Virus record (IMG/VR): IMGVR_UViG_3300040815_000716
Span: 1-33,745 of that record
Direction: 5' to 3' (one strand)
From: a virus
DNA length: 33,745 bases
Position numbers and translations under genes: made by a program. Every line of letters starts with the position of its first letter. The first letter of the stretch is position 1. The notes under the pieces are model-generated. The model was given only the letters and a program-made list of their open reading frames with translations. It was not told the origin of the DNA and made no database searches. Below are positions 2,832 through 10,826 of this stretch, in pieces.

Positions 2832-5318
2832 TTAGTCACCTGTTACGGCTTGGATGTTAGGTGATCGCTCAGGAGTAAGCTCTCCAGGACGCCAAAAGTA
2901 TTCCTGCCCGTACTCCCTTTGCCTTTTTCTTTCAATTTCTCTAAATTTTTGTGATGCCTCTGGGTCTGCCCACTCTCGCAATCTATCTAACACCGATCTT
3001 TCAAATCCTAATCTAGCGTACCAAAGAGAATTACCTGGCAAATAACGCCCAAAAAAATTAACTGATTCTTTACCAAAGTTTGTTTCTTTTCTCATGGCTA
3101 ATTCAAACACATTACCTATTGTTAAATTAGCTAAATCATTTAAAAAACCAAATTGAGGACCTGCTATTGTTTCTGTTAATCCACCGCCAAAACGATTTCT
3201 ACCAGAGAATAAAAAGTCACCCCATATCCCTAGCCCTCCGCTAGAAAGCATAGCTGACCCCCAAAACCTTTCATCTGTCATATCTCTTGGGTCACGTCCT
3301 TTAGCCACCTCTCTCATCTGCATACCCAATGCGGCCAATATTGTAGATGAAATTAAAAGATCTCCAGCTATACTTGCTTTTCTTGGAGCACCTTTTTGTG
3401 TTATTGCGGCCATGATGTTTCTTTGCATAAAAGTCACTGGGAAACTTTTATACATTGCGAATGATCTTGACATTATTCCCGTATAGCTTCCAGGTTGAGA
3501 GGAACCTATTAAAGTAGTCCTAGCTCTAACCGATGCTACAGGAACCGCGTAATTTGTTTGATCTTGGATCATATCTAACACTTTATATGCAAGATCAGAT
3601 TCTGTTGCCAACATATCATCAGGTCTTAAAAATTTAGAACCTTTAAAGTCATATTGTTTAAAGCTAGGCATTTTTGCCCAATCCGACTCAGTAATCCCGT
3701 ACCTTCCAAGAGTATCTTTAAAGGCGTCATTTAATTTTGCATAAGGAACTTTGGCGTTATCAGCTATAAATCCCATAAACTCCATACCAAAAGCCCATCG
3801 ACCCGCCTGTGTAAATGGAGATAGCAAGCTGGCATTAAGAACCGCATTAGATATCATTTCAGATACTTTACCGCCCATGAATTCTGCAGTAAATCTTGCT
3901 TGGCCGTAGGCTGCAGCAGACCAATGCTCTGCGATCAATCCCATTCTTATAGCTTGTTTTTTGGTTGTCTTGTTAGCTGTTAGCATTTTTAAACTAGCAA
4001 AAACCGCAGATTTAAGTTGCGACATCCCTGCCATTCTTTTTGTGATTCTAGTGTAATTTGGATCAGTTGTTATTGCCAAGAGAGAAACTGAACCTAATTG
4101 AGCAGATGTTAAAAAATTACCCAATCCTGCAAAACTTCTTGCTAAAAATTCATTTGCTGGCTGATTGGTTTTCCCGGTTATGTAATTGTACATATCATCA
4201 AATTGCTTAATCTTGCGAGCCAGTGCGTTAGTTGCTTTGCTATTTTTGTTTTTAGCGTCTGTTTGAGCAGCCATTTTGCGAACTTTATTCTGCATGACCC
4301 TAACAGTAGACGTTGGATTTGGGCCGAGTATTTGGAGCATAGCAATATCTTTGCTCATCCCATCAATATGACTCATCATTAAGTCAAAAATATCTCCACT
4401 ACCAAATGACTCGTCATACTTCATGAATGAGTCAGCATCTCTGAAAACCAAAAATCTGTGGTCTTGGCGTCTTTTAGATAAAGATTTACCTTGCCCCGCT
4501 ACCGATGTTTCACTTATCTTGCTCCATCCTTCAGTAGATATTGTTTCCCAAATTTCAGACAAAACTTCGTCAAATTCTGCCTCAGACATTGGTTTCCCAG
4601 TTCTAAAGCTAACCATTTTTTCAACATCTAGCAAAGGCAGAATAAACTCTTTCCACGCCTTTGCCCCTGCCAACCTTACTGCTGTGCTGTCATGAACCTG
4701 AGGCATACCCCAATCTGATCTTTTGGGGATGTCACCACCAGCTTGATTAAATTTAATTCTTAAAAACTCTGCTGTTTCTTTCCAAGCAGCAGCAAGACTT
4801 TTTGCAGATGCGTCCTCAGTAGCCTCTCCAAAAATTTCTCGCACCATGTTTATTGATTTTGCCCTAGCCTTTCTGGTAGTTCGACCTAGAATTTTTGTTT
4901 TCCTAAGTTTTTCAATAACATCTGCCATTTTAGCGTGAGCCATACCTCTAATAACGGCAGCTCGACCCATGACATTTGACCAAGGAGTATTTCCCCTCCC
5001 GTCTCTTTCTAAATGAGAAACTATAGCCTCTCCAATGTTTTTACCTTGATAAGACTCTATATTTTTTAATATTCTATTTTGAGCAGCACGTTGCAAAATC
5101 ATGCGTTTTTTGTTTTGTTGCGCCTCACGTTCTAACACATCAAAAGTATCTCTCGCCGCTTGCGCATTAGCCTCATCAGGCCCCATATTCATATCCTTAG
5201 AGTTTTTACTTTCAAACTCTTGGAATAATTTACGAGCTTTTTGAGCTTGCTCTTTAGTCAGTCCACCATTATCTGGACCTTCTTTCTCAGCGTTATTAAT
5301 ACAATCCAGTAAACTCAT
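2832..5318 (-). CDS. Large internal virion / ejection protein (828 aa), gp16-position
   Basis: I recognise the C-terminal third as a conserved family in podoviruses of aquatic bacteria: a segment with GDFLFSGRNRFGGG, then FGRYLPGNSLWYARLGFER, then RREYG-like and YFWRPGE near the end. The family is usually unnamed or called an internal virion protein. The N-terminal 120 residues are highly charged and likely helical. A hydrophobic stretch near residues 655-680 (IAGDLLISSTILAALGM) could contact membrane. It lies last of three giant genes between the gp14-like gene and the fibre gene, the place of T7 gp16. The start overlaps the stop of the upstream gene by 4 nt. The inferred role is part of the internal core ejected into the host envelope. 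No catalytic motif was found. Confidence 0.75.
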   Translation of the reverse strand: MSLLDCINNAEKEGPDNGGLTKEQAQKARKLFQEFESKNSKDMNMGPDEANAQAARDTFDVLEREAQQNKKRMILQRAAQNRILKNIESYQGKNIGEAIVSHLERDGRGNTPWSNVMGRAAVIRGMAHAKMADVIEKLRKTKILGRTTRKARAKSINMVREIFGEATEDASAKSLAAAWKETAEFLRIKFNQAGGDIPKRSDWGMPQVHDSTAVRLAGAKAWKEFILPLLDVEKMVSFRTGKPMSEAEFDEVLSEIWETISTEGWSKISETSVAGQGKSLSKRRQDHRFLVFRDADSFMKYDESFGSGDIFDLMMSHIDGMSKDIAMLQILGPNPTSTVRVMQNKVRKMAAQTDAKNKNSKATNALARKIKQFDDMYNYITGKTNQPANEFLARSFAGLGNFLTSAQLGSVSLLAITTDPNYTRITKRMAGMSQLKSAVFASLKMLTANKTTKKQAIRMGLIAEHWSAAAYGQARFTAEFMGGKVSEMISNAVLNASLLSPFTQAGRWAFGMEFMGFIADNAKVPYAKLNDAFKDTLGRYGITESDWAKMPSFKQYDFKGSKFLRPDDMLATESDLAYKVLDMIQDQTNYAVPVASVRARTTLIGSSQPGSYTGIMSRSFAMYKSFPVTFMQRNIMAAITQKGAPRKASIAGDLLISSTILAALGMQMREVAKGRDPRDMTDERFWGSAMLSSGGLGIWGDFLFSGRNRFGGGLTETIAGPQFGFLNDLANLTIGNVFELAMRKETNFGKESVNFFGRYLPGNSLWYARLGFERSVLDRLREWADPEASQKFREIERKRQREYGQEYFWRPGELTPERSPNIQAVTGD

Positions 5319-7570
5319 ACTACACAGCCTCTTAATCGATCTATCATTTGTTGTTCTTGAGCTAATTCTTTTTTAATCTCAGCTCCAGTTAGCGTTTTAG
5401 ATACCACTTGGTCATCAATTATTAAATCAACATTAATAATTTCATCATCTGACAAATTATCAAAATCGGTATCTTTCGCAACTTGATCTACAAAATTATC
5501 TACATCAGACTCAACAACCTCAGTTTCTTTAGGGGCTGGCCGTCTGCTAGTCGTTGAAACGTCATCATCTGGAAGGTTACCCTTCTCCATGTTTATTTGA
5601 GCTTTAGCCGTTTTTGCTATACGCTCCTCTATGCGTGATATACTGTCAACAAAAGGAGGTGTTATGTCTAAAAGTTCTTTCTCAGATCCAGTGTTTACAT
5701 CTTGGGATGGTCGGCCAGCAATTCTTTCTCGACCTCCAGGAGCTGCTCTATCAGCTGTTGCTATTTTAGAACCAGGAGGTGATTGGGTGGCTGTAGATGC
5801 ATCAGATGTTGCCAACTCAGCTGCAGTCATATCAGGAGAAGCTGCTTTTAAGCGAAGATTTGCTAAGCGATTTGGGTCATTTAATATGCCCAGCAATGTA
5901 GCAAAAGATTGATTTTCTTTCGATAAAGCCTCTTCATAAAGGCTTTGCATTTCAATTTCTAATTGCTCCCTTTCTGCATCATTTGTTGATGACCTGTGCT
6001 TTTCATAAAGTGCATGGCCTTTAGAGTCTTTTGCTTCAAGTAATTTCTTGGGCCATATTTGAACCTCCCCTAATAGCCCATCATCATTTTTTATTACGAC
6101 TTTTCTATCAAAATAACCAAGTCCAGTTAATTGCCAGCCTTCATCTATAACATCAAAAGTTTTTGACAACTTAGCTACAACTTCATCAGCTTGTCTTGCT
6201 GTGGTAACAATAAACCCAGATCGAACAACATCTGATAATTTATTTGGTGAAGATAAAGATCTTCTTTTTATTTTTTCAGCAGATGTTTTTTTGTTTTTTA
6301 AGCCAGGGCTTTTAAACTTAATTTTTAATTCTTTAGCAATGATTCTCCCTGAATTTTCTAATTTTGCTTGGAATATAGGCGCAATCTCATAAAGACGATC
6401 TAGTGTGTTAAAAGGCTGATTAATCCTTGCTTCATTAACAATGGGATCTATATTTTCTGAAAACTGTAATGGCTGAACTTCTTTAGGTGGATTGGCCATA
6501 AATACTTCATCTGCAGAATGATTGTTTATAGTTTCAATGTTGTATATTTGATTTACATATAAATTATTATCATCCAACCTTTCCCATTGCGTAGAATCTA
6601 AATCAATTATTCTAGGCCCCGTCTCATCTCTAGCAGCCTCAACAGGAATAATAGGACCACCCGGCCCATCTGGAGATTCTAGATCGTCTAAATTGTCTAA
6701 AGCATTTATTTGAACATCGGCCTCTTTAGGATCAATACCTCTACCCTTAAAAGCCTCAAAACCTTTTCTTATTTGATCTCGGGTTAATCTAATGCCAGAA
6801 GTAACGCCTCTAACACCAACAGGAAATGCAGCTCCTAAAATACCACCAGCTGCTACGGCTTTAAAAAAATCCTCATAAGTGTATTGCAGGCCTAAAGAGT
6901 TATACCAATCTTTAATATCTGTTTGCAATATAGCCTCAGAACCAGCGCCTAAAATACCTTCCTTTAAAACCAATTGACTAAGTTTTTGCTTTCCTGATCC
7001 ATAAAATATTTCTGCATAAGTCAAAGGTTGTATTATCTCAAATAGTCCTTTATCAGTAGCTACGCCTGCTAATGATCCAAAAAATGATCCAATATCCCCT
7101 GCCGTTGACGCTCTTTGCGAAGTTTCTTCATTGAGCTTCATAAGCTCTAATGCTCTGTTTTTTATATTCTCGGTTAACTTTTCTTCATTATAATCAGCAT
7201 ATTCAGGGTATAAATCAGGATATTTTCTTAAATGATTAAAAACCTCTTCTAATTTAGAAATTCTTGCTTTTTCGTAGGTTTCATCAAAAATAGAAAAATA
7301 ATGACCAGGGTTTTCAAATCCAAGATCTGGCTCATACCATGATCTTTCAGGACCATCAACAATTCCTGCGTCTAAATTTTTATTCATTTGAATAATTAAT
7401 GGCCGTAACTCCTCAGTCATCAATTCGGTCATGCTGTCAGTGTTAGACCCCATCATTTGGGTTTCTAAAGATCGCACAAAAGCATCAATATAGCCTATCT
7501 CTTCTCCACCATAAGGTAACGGAGTTGACCCTATTCCTGTGTTGTAATAATCATCAAAGAAAACAGTCAT
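5315..7570 (-). CDS. Ejection protein with RelA/SpoT-like segment (751 aa)
   Basis: It lies between the gp15-like and gp16-like genes, so it is probably a virion core protein ejected at infection. Residues 1-150 are acidic and helical; residues 155-260 contain Gly/Ala-rich hydrophobic stretches that may interact with membrane. Residues about 385-527 resemble the RelA/SpoT (p)ppGpp synthetase fold: a Lys/Arg/Ser-rich segment (KIKFKSPGLKNKK), LSDVVRSGFIV with Asp447 and Arg450, GYFDRKVV with Tyr486, GEVQIW with Glu502, and GHALYEKHR with His519. This order matches the family's basic ATP-binding segment, Mg-binding Asp, stacking Tyr, E-x-Q and H-x-x-Y-K motifs. Residues 560-751 are low-complexity and acidic. 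The fold is an inference from motif order; activity is unknown. Confidence 0.72.
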   Translation of the reverse strand: MTVFFDDYYNTGIGSTPLPYGGEEIGYIDAFVRSLETQMMGSNTDSMTELMTEELRPLIIQMNKNLDAGIVDGPERSWYEPDLGFENPGHYFSIFDETYEKARISKLEEVFNHLRKYPDLYPEYADYNEEKLTENIKNRALELMKLNEETSQRASTAGDIGSFFGSLAGVATDKGLFEIIQPLTYAEIFYGSGKQKLSQLVLKEGILGAGSEAILQTDIKDWYNSLGLQYTYEDFFKAVAAGGILGAAFPVGVRGVTSGIRLTRDQIRKGFEAFKGRGIDPKEADVQINALDNLDDLESPDGPGGPIIPVEAARDETGPRIIDLDSTQWERLDDNNLYVNQIYNIETINNHSADEVFMANPPKEVQPLQFSENIDPIVNEARINQPFNTLDRLYEIAPIFQAKLENSGRIIAKELKIKFKSPGLKNKKTSAEKIKRRSLSSPNKLSDVVRSGFIVTTARQADEVVAKLSKTFDVIDEGWQLTGLGYFDRKVVIKNDDGLLGEVQIWPKKLLEAKDSKGHALYEKHRSSTNDAEREQLEIEMQSLYEEALSKENQSFATLLGILNDPNRLANLRLKAASPDMTAAELATSDASTATQSPPGSKIATADRAAPGGRERIAGRPSQDVNTGSEKELLDITPPFVDSISRIEERIAKTAKAQINMEKGNLPDDDVSTTSRRPAPKETEVVESDVDNFVDQVAKDTDFDNLSDDEIINVDLIIDDQVVSKTLTGAEIKKELAQEQQMIDRLRGCVV

Positions 7571-7574
7571 TGAG

Positions 7575-10265
7575 TTACATTCCTAAAGTGTACATCATCG
7601 GATCGTCAGCACCAGGCCCTAATGTTTTTAGATCGATTAAATACGGCTGACCATCTGGGCCGTATATTTCCAACCCTGACTTTAGCCGCAATTTATATAT
7701 CCCATCGCCAACAGTAATTAACTGAGCAGATTTTAAAACATCTATTGATACACCAAGCCCGTTTTCAGCGCCAACAGGTTTACTATTATATTTAACATAT
7801 CTACCGTCTTGATTAGGCTGATAAACTGCATACGGCACAATATCATCTGCGGTTTTCATATTGTCAAAAATAGCCTTTAAGCCGCCGTCGCTGAGAATAT
7901 TATTTGGAATGATTACTTGCCTATCATTGTATTTAACAATGCCGCCATTCTTTCCAACCTTCCCAGCAGCTAATTGCAATGCCTCTTCATACACATTTTT
8001 ATCAAGTTTTCCTCGATTTCTTTCTGTCCCGAGATATATAAACCCAGCAACTTTTTTAATATTATTAACAGCACTAACCATTGATGGCTCTAAATTTATG
8101 CCTGATAATATTTCTACTCTTTCTTCTTGTTGATCTGTATATTCAGTGTATGCTTGGTCCTTCATACCCTGTGCAATTTTTCTTCCAACTAAAGCCCTCT
8201 GAATTACATCTGGTGATGACCCTAAATCTATTAGGCCTCCAATATGCATTAATTCACCAGCTGTTTTATTAGACGCAATCTGTTTAAACACTTCTCTAGA
8301 ATCAGTGCCAAAAGTTTTAGATATTCTTTGTAAAAATGCACCTTGAACTTCAATCGGAGTGTCTGGGTCATTCAAAATTTGAGCCATAGAGTCAGCTTCA
8401 TTTTGAGTAAAATACTTTATTGGAGATCCATAATGCTCAGCTGTTGCTAATGCGGCATCCTTCCTGCGAGTTATAGATGCGCCCAAAGATTCGTCCGTTT
8501 GATCTTCAGCTGGATAAAATAATTGGTCTACTAAGTTTGCTTCAATCTCAACCCGTCCAGAATCATTTGCCCACAAAAGTGGATCGCTATTGACTCCAGA
8601 GTTAATTGCCTTTTCTCTTTCCTTTAAAATATTTTGCAATTTAATTAAACGTGCGCCTTCAGCTAAATTGTAATCAAAATCAGGACTAGAAACCCCCTCT
8701 ACAGCAGTTTGAACCGCAGTTAACTTAGCCTCTATTTCAGATAGATTATCGTCTTTAATATCTACAGCAAGATTAGTAAAAAACTTTAACTCTGCAAGAT
8801 TTTCTTTTACGTCATTTAACATTCCTGAGGGAAAGGCAGAATCTTCTTCTAAACTATTTATTGCTATATCAAGACTCTCGAAATAAGTTTGATCTATCAC
8901 TTCCCCGCTATCTACTATTTCTTGAATAGTAGACATTTGTTTTTCTATATCATCTACCATTGGCTGAAATTCAGCTTTTATAGCTTTAAGTTCTCCTGCC
9001 CTTTTTTGAAATTCTTTTTCTGCCTGCGTTAATCTAAATTTAACTACAGGAGTTGCTTGCTCATTAAAGAGCTTTTGCAAACCTTGTACTTCATTATTGA
9101 GCTCTTCTATGTTGTATTTTTTTATTTGCTTAAGATAATTTGTATTTTCCTCAAGATTTAAAAAATCTTTTTTAAGCGCATTGATTAATTCGAGGTCAAG
9201 TCCTTCCTCTTCTAAATCGTTAATTCGCTGCTCTAATGCAGTAAATTTTTCATCCGATACCACGCCACCGCTTTTAACGACAGATGCAATTTCTTCTCTC
9301 ATAGTGACGCCTATTGCATTTGCTTTAGCAGTCATAGTTTTACTATCGAAATTATATTCTTGCACTAAACTACTTAGAACTGCCTCGGCCTCTGAGGTTA
9401 AAAGTCCTCTAGATAATCCCTTACCTTTACTTCCATCAGTCTTAGAAATGTTATCTTCTAATGATTCTAAAAATTCTTTTTTCTCGGCTAGAGTCCCTCT
9501 AGATCTATAATCACCTCTAAGGCGCTCAGCATTAGCAGTCACCGTCATTGAATTAACTTTTCTAGCAACTTCCTCTGGGCTGAAATTCCCGGCCAATAAG
9601 TATGCCTCGTACCGAGCAATTTCGCCCCCCATAAAAGAGTCCCAATCGACATAAGAGCCTTTTGATAAATCTTCTATGTTTCTTCTAAATTCGCGCTCAC
9701 CCTGAATGACCTCAGCTTTTCTTTTTGCATTTTGTTTTTTCTGATACTTTTCAGAGTAATCCAAGAAAAACCCATTCTTGGCGTTTTCCATATTTAACTT
9801 AAACGACTCTGCCGCAACTGGGTCAAACAATCCCAATGACTCAGAAAATCCTTCGACAACAGCGCTTAAGTTCATATTAAGATCTGACGGATCAATGTCA
9901 TCATTTTGAGCATTGAACAAAACCGTTCCCATAGTCTGCCTAGCCAAAACTTCCATTTTTAAACTTATGGTTTCCTTAGCGGCATCGTATGCAGCACGTT
10001 CCTCAATATTAAAGCTAGACTTATCTCTTCCCTCAAAGGACTCTAAAGTCGATTGAGCATCAAGCATTCCCCTTTCAGCGCCTGCTACCTTTTTTTGCCG
10101 AGAGGCTGTTTCAAAAGCAAAATTTGAAATTTGTTGTAGCGCCGCAGCAGTTCCCGATTGAGATCTAATTATTTCTTTGTTGGCAGCAAAATCAATTGAT
10201 GGGACTCCTCTTGGCCCAGCAGTTCTTATCGGCTGATATAATAACTTTTCAAATATCTCACTCAT
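7575..10265 (-). CDS. Internal virion protein, gp15-like position (896 aa)
   Basis: A very long, mainly helical and charged protein with extensive coiled-coil-like stretches, roughly residues 140-500 (many Glu, Lys, Leu and Gln at heptad spacing). It has no signal peptide or clear membrane helix. The C-terminal 60 residues look globular (VGDGIYKLRLKSGLEIYG and a Gly/Pro-rich end). It is placed directly after the gp14-like gene and before two more giant genes, matching T7 gp15, which forms part of the ejected core and tube. Sequence similarity to T7 gp15 itself was not recognised, so the assignment is by size, composition and order. The gap to the next gene is only 4 nt. Confidence 0.7.
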   Translation of the reverse strand: MSEIFEKLLYQPIRTAGPRGVPSIDFAANKEIIRSQSGTAAALQQISNFAFETASRQKKVAGAERGMLDAQSTLESFEGRDKSSFNIEERAAYDAAKETISLKMEVLARQTMGTVLFNAQNDDIDPSDLNMNLSAVVEGFSESLGLFDPVAAESFKLNMENAKNGFFLDYSEKYQKKQNAKRKAEVIQGEREFRRNIEDLSKGSYVDWDSFMGGEIARYEAYLLAGNFSPEEVARKVNSMTVTANAERLRGDYRSRGTLAEKKEFLESLEDNISKTDGSKGKGLSRGLLTSEAEAVLSSLVQEYNFDSKTMTAKANAIGVTMREEIASVVKSGGVVSDEKFTALEQRINDLEEEGLDLELINALKKDFLNLEENTNYLKQIKKYNIEELNNEVQGLQKLFNEQATPVVKFRLTQAEKEFQKRAGELKAIKAEFQPMVDDIEKQMSTIQEIVDSGEVIDQTYFESLDIAINSLEEDSAFPSGMLNDVKENLAELKFFTNLAVDIKDDNLSEIEAKLTAVQTAVEGVSSPDFDYNLAEGARLIKLQNILKEREKAINSGVNSDPLLWANDSGRVEIEANLVDQLFYPAEDQTDESLGASITRRKDAALATAEHYGSPIKYFTQNEADSMAQILNDPDTPIEVQGAFLQRISKTFGTDSREVFKQIASNKTAGELMHIGGLIDLGSSPDVIQRALVGRKIAQGMKDQAYTEYTDQQEERVEILSGINLEPSMVSAVNNIKKVAGFIYLGTERNRGKLDKNVYEEALQLAAGKVGKNGGIVKYNDRQVIIPNNILSDGGLKAIFDNMKTADDIVPYAVYQPNQDGRYVKYNSKPVGAENGLGVSIDVLKSAQLITVGDGIYKLRLKSGLEIYGPDGQPYLIDLKTLGPGADDPMMYTLGM

Positions 10266-10277
10266 CTTTATCCGATC

Positions 10278-10826
10278 CTATCCAATACTTTGCTCAACAA
10301 TTGGCGCTGGTCTGCCAGTTCTTCGCCCAAATGGTGATGAGCTAAAAACACCTAATTCACTACCCATTTGATAAGCACTGCCAAACTGAGCTAATGCATT
10401 CATATATCCCTGCCGCTTAGCAGTAGTACCTGCAGATTGATATTGTGCAACTTGTATCAACCCTCCAGCCTCAATTAACTGTGCCTGCTCTTGACTTAAA
10501 TTTTTATTTTCTTGACTGGTATAAAAATCTGTCAAACCCTTTTCTAAATTTGCTGTAACCAAGTTATCAACAGAACCAGAAAAAGGATCAATAGACCCAG
10601 CAGCTGCCCTGGCGTTTACAGTGCCTAAATTTCTTGCCAAGTTTTTTAGCACCTCTACTCCATCTTGCCTATATTTTAATGTATCTGCTCTTTGCGATAA
10701 GGCCGCACTTCTAGCTTGTATAGCAGCCTGCTGCGCCTGCTGATTGTACATTGCTTGTTGAGCTTGACCCTGCCTTATACTGGATATACCACCAACAACT
10801 GCCGCTGCTACCGCTACATATTGCAT
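10278..10826 (-). CDS. Internal virion protein, T7 gp14-like (182 aa)
   Basis: It begins with a hydrophobic helix (QYVAVAAAVVGGISSI) followed by a Gln/Ala-rich helical region (QQAQQAAIQARSAALSQRAD). It continues with GTVNARAAAGSIDPFSGS and an end rich in small residues. This layout is the one I know for gp14-type internal virion proteins of T7-like phages, which enter the outer membrane during DNA ejection. Size is close to T7 gp14 (196 aa). It sits between the gp12-like gene (1 nt between stop and start) and the gp15-position gene. Confidence 0.82.
   Translation of the reverse strand: MQYVAVAAAVVGGISSIRQGQAQQAMYNQQAQQAAIQARSAALSQRADTLKYRQDGVEVLKNLARNLGTVNARAAAGSIDPFSGSVDNLVTANLEKGLTDFYTSQENKNLSQEQAQLIEAGGLIQVAQYQSAGTTAKRQGYMNALAQFGSAYQMGSELGVFSSSPFGRRTGRPAPIVEQSIG

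What the first reader, a model, noticed from the sequence alone, without database searches (positions are those of the whole stretch)
5990..6418. RelA/SpoT-like nucleotidyltransferase segment inside an injected virion protein
Seen: residues about 385-527 of the 751-aa ejection protein carry, in order, KIKFKSPGLKNKK, LSDVVRSGFIV, GYFDRKVV, GEVQIW and GHALYEKHR. Known: RelA/SpoT synthetase domains have a basic Arg/Lys-Ser ATP-binding segment, a Mg-binding Asp followed by Arg, a Tyr that stacks on the guanine, an E-x-Q strand and an H-x-x-Y-K end. Phage proteins with effector domains attached to ejected or MuF-type proteins are also known. Inferred: this phage may deliver an alarmone-synthetase-like or related enzyme into the host with its DNA, to slow host metabolism or block competitors. 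It is flanked by acidic, disordered segments, fitting a module inserted in a core protein.
Basis: partly seen in the sequence, partly recalled or inferred. Interest (0 to 1): 0.78.

Follow-up and report, generated by a model that had tools for sequence, protein, structure and literature searches.

The report
Swappable alarmone-synthetase cassette in phage protein
A virus of bacteria carries, inside a protein it probably injects with its DNA, a module folded like a bacterial alarmone-making enzyme, and close relatives carry a different toxin-like enzyme in exactly the same slot, which suggests that these viruses swap weapons in and out of one delivery protein.

Summary
Residues ~390-563 of the 751-aa protein (window 5315-7570, minus strand) fold like a RelA/SpoT-type synthetase. 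AF2 pLDDT is 86.7; Foldseek against PDB gives probability 1.0, and all 50 best hits are alarmone or toxSAS synthetases, led by SaEAS and Tas1. A profile of 21 phage homologues finds one convincing solved structure, the (p)ppApp synthetase Tas1 (E=7e-20). Asp447, Tyr486 and Glu502 are invariant.

The module is a mobile, in-frame cassette. The nearest relative is ~88% identical on both sides but carries a Zeta_toxin (E=1e-18) in the same slot. Elsewhere the same Rel cassette (94-100% identical) sits in backbones 16-52% identical, and a near-twin lacks it. Rel-like domains occur in 33 of 66 loci sampled through the neighbouring gene; cassette type changed at least 14 times on that gene's tree.

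Gene order and near-absence of cysteine mark an ejection protein. Its only cysteine is third from the C-terminus, and the next protein's only cysteine is residue 6, a conserved pairing.

Injected RelA/SpoT and zeta domains were predicted in 2017, so this is a new variant. Activity, product and delivery are untested.

The parts
5315..7570 (-). 751-aa cassette-bearing ejection protein (backbone + Rel-like module)
   Evidence: gene order gp14-like / 896 aa / 751 aa / 828 aa / fibre; one Cys in 751 aa
6578..7570 (-). Conserved N-terminal backbone, residues 1-331 (mostly helical, AF2 only pLDDT 61)
   Evidence: 87.5% aa identity to L002, DNA ~89% over a block that continues into the 896-aa gene
5633..6577 (-). 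Exchanged cassette, residues ~332-646
   Evidence: no DNA similarity to L002 between aa 331 and 647 whereas both flanks match; in L002 the same slot holds Zeta_toxin PF06414, E=1.1e-18
5882..6403 (-). RelA/SpoT-like (Tas1-like) pyrophosphate-transferase domain, residues ~390-563
   Evidence: profile vs PDB: Tas1 7e-20; AF2 pLDDT 86.7, pTM 0.82; Foldseek PDB 5.8e-7, prob 1.0
6230..6298 (-). Codons of Lys425 (6296-6298), Lys433 and Asp447 (6230-6232): donor-ATP lysines and Mg-binding Asp; Arg450 follows
   Evidence: invariant in 21 homologues; same spacing as FaRel2 K66/S70/K74 (PMC11782079)
6065..6115 (-). Codons of Tyr486 (6113-6115) and Glu502 (6065-6067): acceptor-stacking Tyr and Syn4 Glu; Gln504 adjoins
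   Evidence: invariant in 21 homologues; FaRel2 Y128, E145, Q147
5702..5719 (-). Linker motif AGRPSQ (residues 618-623) that travels with some Rel cassettes
   Evidence: [AS]GR[PQ]SQ in 11 of 43 window-type Rel proteins and in 0 of 62 others
5318..5632 (-). Conserved C-terminal backbone, residues 647-751, ending MIDRLRGCVV
   Evidence: 88% aa identity to L002, DNA identity ~0.92-0.97 in most windows; C-terminal lone-Cys tail in the family
5324..5326 (-). Cys749, the only cysteine of the 751-aa protein
2832..5318 (-). 828-aa virion structural protein (phrog_684), overlapping the 751-aa gene by 4 bases; its only cysteine is Cys6 (codon 5301-5303)
   Evidence: phrog_684 E=1.1e-167; single N-terminal Cys in homologues
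7575..10265 (-). 896-aa ejection-type protein (phrog_992), cysteine-free
10278..10826 (-). T7 gp14-like internal virion protein
   Evidence: PF24072 E=2.9e-4 (below its cut-off), phrog_418 E=8.1e-5

Best explanation
The 751-aa protein is a core (ejection) protein of a T7-like podovirus, with an exchangeable effector slot between a conserved N-terminal backbone and a conserved C-terminal tail. In this phage the slot holds a Tas1-like RelA/SpoT-fold pyrophosphate transferase. The likely course: the protein sits in the virion core, is threaded into the host with the neighbouring core proteins, and refolds in the cytoplasm. There the module moves pyrophosphate from ATP to the 3' position of an acceptor, most likely an adenine or guanine nucleotide. 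This draws down purine nucleotides and slows host transcription, translation or defence at the start of infection. Close relatives would deliver a zeta-type kinase from the same slot, so the slot is a swappable payload position, comparable to polymorphic toxins. Shown: fold, conserved active-site residues, cassette exchange, gene context, cysteine pattern. Inferred: injection, catalysis, acceptor, benefit.
For: Fold and residues. Chain of homology: the profile of 21 domains reaches a standalone cellular homologue (L136, 4.9e-26); L136 passes the PF04607 cut-off (2.8e-9) and hits Tas1 (1e-12). The same profile reaches 713-738-aa open frames, the size of long RSHs, at 4e-4 to 5e-7. Sister cassettes in the same slot pass PF04607 directly (L066, 5.8e-8). 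Exchange: the window keeps L002's backbone but has Rel where L002 has zeta; L088/L037 and L086/L042 share a cassette 94-100% identical over most of its length in much more divergent backbones; L038/L078 differ by presence or absence. At least 14 changes on the neighbour tree; 33 of 66 loci carry a Rel-like domain. Context. Cassettes obey the cysteine-poor rule of ejection proteins, whereas cellular zeta and RSH counterparts have ~0.8 Cys per 100 aa. Relatives carry SLT, lysozyme, GNAT or ART-like domains in this gene.
Against: No direct Pfam or NCBIfam match of the window protein. Syn3 (GYFDRK) matches neither RSH (SxH) nor Apk2 (GxN), so substrate or activity may differ. No immunity gene was found in the window; a very fast ATP-consuming enzyme could also harm the phage. 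The N-terminal backbone has no recognisable fold and no sequence match to T7 gp15/gp16 in PDB. Presence in virions is not shown.
Confidence: 0.68

Rival explanations
1. The module is a tRNA-targeting toxSAS (FaRel2/CapRel type) that pyrophosphorylates tRNA 3'-CCA ends and stops host translation on entry.
For: Same fold; CapRel is among the Foldseek hits. The Syn3 signature differs from known nucleotide synthetases, and FaRel2 donor and acceptor residues map onto the window protein.
Against: The only convincing sequence hit in PDB is the (p)ppApp synthetase Tas1; top fold hits are nucleotide synthetases (SaEAS, Tas1, SAS1) and CapRel ranks lower. A lytic phage needs translation too.
Confidence: 0.12
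2. The module is a catalytically dead Rel fold used as a structural or nucleotide-binding part of the ejection core.
For: It lies within a structural protein; the Syn3 motif is atypical; no immunity gene accompanies it.
Against: The full set of catalytic residues is invariant in 21 homologues down to ~23% identity. It is interchangeable with an unrelated enzyme (zeta) and can be absent from close relatives, which does not suit a structural need.
Confidence: 0.15
3. It is a classic polymorphic toxin with an immunity gene, used by lysogens against competitors and not during lytic entry.
For: MuF-Apk2 prophage toxins come with immunity genes (PMC12226406). The Methylobacterium prophage form has an extra 90-aa ORF just after the cassette gene (L125:8711-8983). 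Cellular homologues L136 and L138 have small, mutually similar ORFs behind them.
Against: The window gene overlaps the next virion gene with no room for an immunity gene. No homologue of the three candidate small ORFs was found in the window or in other phage loci, and no hydrolase in the window ORFs scanned.
Confidence: 0.08

Closest known systems
Tas1/Apk1 (T6SS (p)ppApp synthetase, PDB 6OX6) and SaEAS (exported alarmone synthetase, PDB 8VX3)
   Same: Fold, donor lysines, Asp, Tyr, ExQ; best sequence and fold hits; delivered or exported enzymes.
   Different: Carried inside a phage core protein; Syn3 is GYFDRK; no partner immunity gene found; no cysteine in the module.
Apk2, MuF-fused (p)ppApp synthetase toxins of temperate phages (PMC12226406)
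   Same: Alarmone-synthetase domain fused to a phage head-associated protein.
   Different: No MuF domain found here; module sits in the middle, not at the C-terminus, of an ejection-type protein; no IapK/Aph1 genes found.
Polyvalent proteins (Iyer et al. 2017, PMC5512222)
   Same: Predicted co-injected phage proteins with RelA/SpoT, zeta, ART, GNAT, ParB and lysozyme domains; many relatives here look like this type.
   Different: RelA/SpoT acquisitions were reported there for spirochaete and epsilon-proteobacterial (pro)phages and MuF fusions, zeta for conjugative elements and MuF fusions. Cassette exchange at nucleotide level in a podovirus ejection protein was not found in the passages read.
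T7 gp14/gp15/gp16 ejection proteins
   Same: Gene order, lack of cysteine, peptidoglycan-hydrolase domains in relatives; domain swapping between ejection proteins is known for peptidoglycan-hydrolase domains (PMC8954989).
   Different: Payload is a toxin-type enzyme, not a peptidoglycan hydrolase; lone cysteines at the abutting ends of two consecutive proteins.
Zeta toxins (PF06414)
   Same: Occupy the same slot in the closest relatives.
   Different: Unrelated fold and chemistry; not present in the window.

Membership tests
RelA/SpoT-homologue synthetase fold, Tas1-like branch | Synthetase fold of the Pol-beta NTase superfamily | tested here: met
   AF2 pLDDT 86.7; Foldseek PDB: 50 of 50 listed hits are RSH/SAS/toxSAS, prob 1.0, query TM 0.40-0.63
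RelA/SpoT-homologue synthetase fold, Tas1-like branch | Significant sequence homology to a characterised member | tested here: met
   profile vs Tas1 E=7e-20
RelA/SpoT-homologue synthetase fold, Tas1-like branch | Donor-site lysines, Mg Asp + Arg, acceptor Tyr, Syn4 ExQ | tested here: met
   K425, K433, D447, R450, Y486, E502, Q504 invariant in 21 homologues
RelA/SpoT-homologue synthetase fold, Tas1-like branch | ATP-dependent 3'-pyrophosphate transfer | not testable with these tools
   needs purified protein
Pfam PF04607 RelA_SpoT as defined by its model | Match at or above gathering score | tested here: not met
   window protein 0 hits; relatives L066 and L136 pass
(p)ppGpp synthetase (RSH/SAS) or Apk2-type (p)ppApp synthetase by signature | Syn3 SxH (RSH) or GxN (Apk2) | tested here: not met
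   window Syn3 is GYFDRK; signatures from PMC12226406
MuF-Apk2 toxins | N-terminal MuF domain and downstream iapK/aph1 | tested here: not met
   no MuF hit in Pfam; no hydrolase in scanned window ORFs; no homologue of candidate immunity ORFs
toxSAS toxin-antitoxin modules | Adjacent or fused antitoxin | tested here: not met
   cassette gene overlaps the 828-aa virion gene; no antitoxin-like ORF found
Podovirus ejection protein (T7 gp14-gp15-gp16 type) | Position between tail tube and fibre genes beside a gp14-like protein | tested here: met
Podovirus ejection protein (T7 gp14-gp15-gp16 type) | Sequence or fold match to gp15/gp16 | tested here: inconclusive
   none for the window; relatives L047 and L125 hit phrog_342, internal virion protein with endolysin domain, at 1.9e-6 and 1.1e-4
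Podovirus ejection protein (T7 gp14-gp15-gp16 type) | Present in virions and ejected | not testable with these tools
   needs proteomics
Polyvalent proteins | Several biochemically unrelated domains in one injected polypeptide | tested here: inconclusive
   window has one recognisable enzymatic domain; relatives add a ParB-like region to Rel, zeta or GNAT

The most novel reading that the evidence does not exclude
Podovirus ejection proteins are a polymorphic-effector delivery chassis. Rel, zeta and other enzyme cassettes are exchanged in frame into a core protein that must stay cysteine-poor. Its single C-terminal cysteine forms a disulfide with the single N-terminal cysteine of the next core protein, tethering the payload until the reducing host cytoplasm frees it.
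Probability: 0.28. Interest if true: 0.87.

Novelty: new variant of a known kind. Interest (0 to 1): 0.7.

Why it matters
It ties an alarmone-type enzyme to the ejection machinery of short-tailed phages and shows at nucleotide level that the payload is exchanged for an unrelated toxin. This makes the 2017 prediction of co-injected effector domains directly testable in a small, defined set of genes. It also raises the question of how a phage without an immunity gene tolerates such an enzyme. The paired lone cysteines give a simple biochemical test of how core proteins are held and released.

Tried and rejected
Direct family scans (Pfam, NCBIfam) gave nothing for the window protein; PHROGs gave only phrog_37685, unknown function, E=0.038. 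Named phage records hold no convincing relative of the domain (one weak hit, E=0.5) and only distant matches of the N-terminal part in Vibrio phages. AF2 of the N-terminal backbone was poor (pLDDT 61) and its fold search gave no match, so no fold is claimed. Profiles of the N-terminal backbone and of the 828-aa protein against PDB gave nothing. Troponin and other weak Pfam hits were dismissed as coiled-coil noise. The candidate immunity ORF of L138 had no convincing PDB relative, and none of the three candidate small ORFs had a Pfam hit, so Tis1 likeness is not claimed. Literature searches for zeta toxin with internal virion proteins and for cysteine or disulfide in ejection proteins found nothing relevant in the open library. 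The locus set L084-L118 was recruited with the Rel domain itself and is not used for frequencies.

Full report
Observation. The window is an IMG/VR virus record of 33,745 bases. ORF 5315-7570 (-) encodes 751 aa, and residues 385-527 (5990-6418) contain the quoted peptides. Its neighbours are a gp14-like protein (10278-10826), an 896-aa head protein (7575-10265) and an 828-aa virion structural protein (2832-5318). It therefore lies where podoviruses keep their ejection proteins.

What the module is. No Pfam or NCBIfam model hits the window protein. The 143-aa segment alone has Tas1, a type VI effector that makes (p)ppApp, as best PDB hit at E=0.01. Related phage proteins gave an alignment of 21 domains in which Lys425, Lys433, Asp447, Arg450, Gly485, Tyr486, Asp488, Lys490, Glu502, Gln504 and Tyr522 are invariant. 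A profile from it hits Tas1 at 7e-20 and nothing else convincing in PDB. AlphaFold2 gives pLDDT 86.7 and pTM 0.82. Foldseek against PDB returns SaEAS and Tas1 first (5.8e-7, probability 1.0), then SAS1, SpoT, CapRel, Rel and RelP; all 50 listed hits belong to this superfamily. The donor and acceptor residues reported for FaRel2 (PMC11782079) fall on Lys425, Lys433, Arg450, Tyr486, Glu502 and Gln504 by motif spacing. Homology to canonical Rel is transitive: the profile reaches a standalone cellular homologue (L136, 4.9e-26) that passes the PF04607 cut-off and hits Tas1 at 1e-12. Sister cassettes such as L066 pass PF04607 directly. The Syn3 motif, GY[FR]D[RI]K in the aligned domains, is neither the SxH of (p)ppGpp synthetases nor the GxN of Apk2 enzymes (PMC12226406). 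The acceptor is therefore open; an adenine nucleotide is only the best guess.

The module is a mobile cassette. The closest relative, L002, matches the window at DNA level up to residue 331 and again from 647 onward, with no similarity between. There it has a Zeta_toxin domain (PF06414, 1.1e-18) with an intact GPPASGKS loop. Conversely, L088 and L037 share a Rel cassette that is 94-100% identical over about 250 residues and 84% in the next stretch, in backbones 16-52% identical. L086 and L042 share one 94-98% identical, falling to 70% at its end, in backbones of mostly 24-66% identity. L038 is 86-100% identical to L078 across most of the backbone but lacks the Rel cassette. Of 66 loci recruited only through the 828-aa neighbour, 33 carry a Rel-like domain (three subgroups), 12 zeta and 21 others or none. 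Others carry SLT, phage lysozyme, GNAT, or a sub-threshold ART-PolyVal match in the same gene. On a tree of the neighbour protein, cassette type changes at least 14 times (this tree includes loci recruited by the Rel domain and has some long branches). Of 36 loci recruited by the domain, most carry it in the gene directly upstream of the 828-aa homologue; L091, L096 and L118 show it in other or unclear contexts.

Ejection-protein signature. Cysteine counts are striking. Homologues of the cassette protein have exactly one cysteine in 62 of 64 cases (mean length 1,017 aa). Homologues of the 828-aa protein have one in 80 of 89, nearly always near the N-terminus. The 896-aa family has none in 39 of 40. 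As controls, T7 gp15 and gp16 and Sf6 gp12 and gp13 have none, while T7 and Sf6 tail, portal, coat and terminase proteins have two to thirteen. Cellular zeta and RSH counterparts have about 0.8 per 100 aa, and the phage zeta cassettes have none in 2,405 aa. The lone cysteines sit at the abutting ends of the two proteins encoded by the overlapping genes: 90 of 105 locus pairs strictly, and most exceptions (Cys at 2 and 9) look like an upstream start codon being counted. I infer that the cassettes are held to the rule of proteins that pass through the channel, and that the two cysteines may form a disulfide; the latter is a hypothesis.

Mechanism. Shown: fold, conserved active-site residues, cassette exchange, gene context, cysteine pattern. 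Inferred: packaging in the virion core, ejection, refolding in the cytoplasm, pyrophosphate transfer from ATP to a purine acceptor, and benefit through early host shut-down. A difficulty is that related enzymes are very fast (about 100,000 per minute for SaEAS, PMC12691689) and no immunity gene was found. Reduced activity, a different acceptor, or inhibition inside the full-length protein would resolve this. In a Methylobacterium prophage the cassette gene is followed by an extra 90-aa acidic ORF, a candidate immunity gene. Cellular homologues L136 and L138 also have small downstream ORFs, mutually similar at E~0.002-0.007 in a small search.

Relation to known systems. Iyer et al. 2017 (PMC5512222) predicted RelA/SpoT and zeta domains in co-injected polyvalent or MuF-fused proteins, and MuF-Apk2 enzymes have been shown to make (p)ppApp (PMC12226406). 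The kind is thus known. The variant here is a Tas1-like module as an exchangeable cassette in a podovirus ejection protein, with direct evidence of swapping and a cysteine-pairing pattern that I did not find described. It should not be filed as an Apk2 toxin, a toxSAS toxin-antitoxin module or a PF04607 match, since those tests were not met.

Noticed in passing
window 5324-5326 and 5301-5303; loci: Each of two consecutive core proteins has a single cysteine, one at the C-terminus of the first and one at residue ~6 of the second; 90 of 105 locus pairs strictly. Suggests an interprotein disulfide.
   Followed up: partly
L125:8711-8983: 90-aa acidic ORF between the Rel-cassette gene and the 828-aa homologue in a Methylobacterium jeotgali prophage; candidate immunity gene, no Pfam or PHROG match.
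   Followed up: partly
L136:1175-1375 (-) and L138:2203-2463 (+): Small, weakly similar ORFs directly behind cellular homologues of the Rel-like domain; L138 also fuses an HD hydrolase domain to it. They look like toxin-antitoxin or immunity pairs.
   Followed up: partly
window 5702-5719; Linker motif [AS]GR[PQ]SQ about 130-150 residues after GYxD in 11 of 43 window-type Rel proteins and in none of 62 others; it appears to travel with the cassette.
   Followed up: partly
L091:6927-14558: 2543-aa phage protein with the same Rel-like domain near its N-terminus, in a different gene context from the podovirus core module.
   Followed up: no
L018, L031, L042, L047 and others, e.g. the FIADGHQRLGLAKRL region: Many relatives add a ParB/DdrB-like region before the effector slot (phrog_10691, and phrog_21 named portal protein); no Pfam hit, assignment by motif and by annotated fold neighbours only.
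   Followed up: partly
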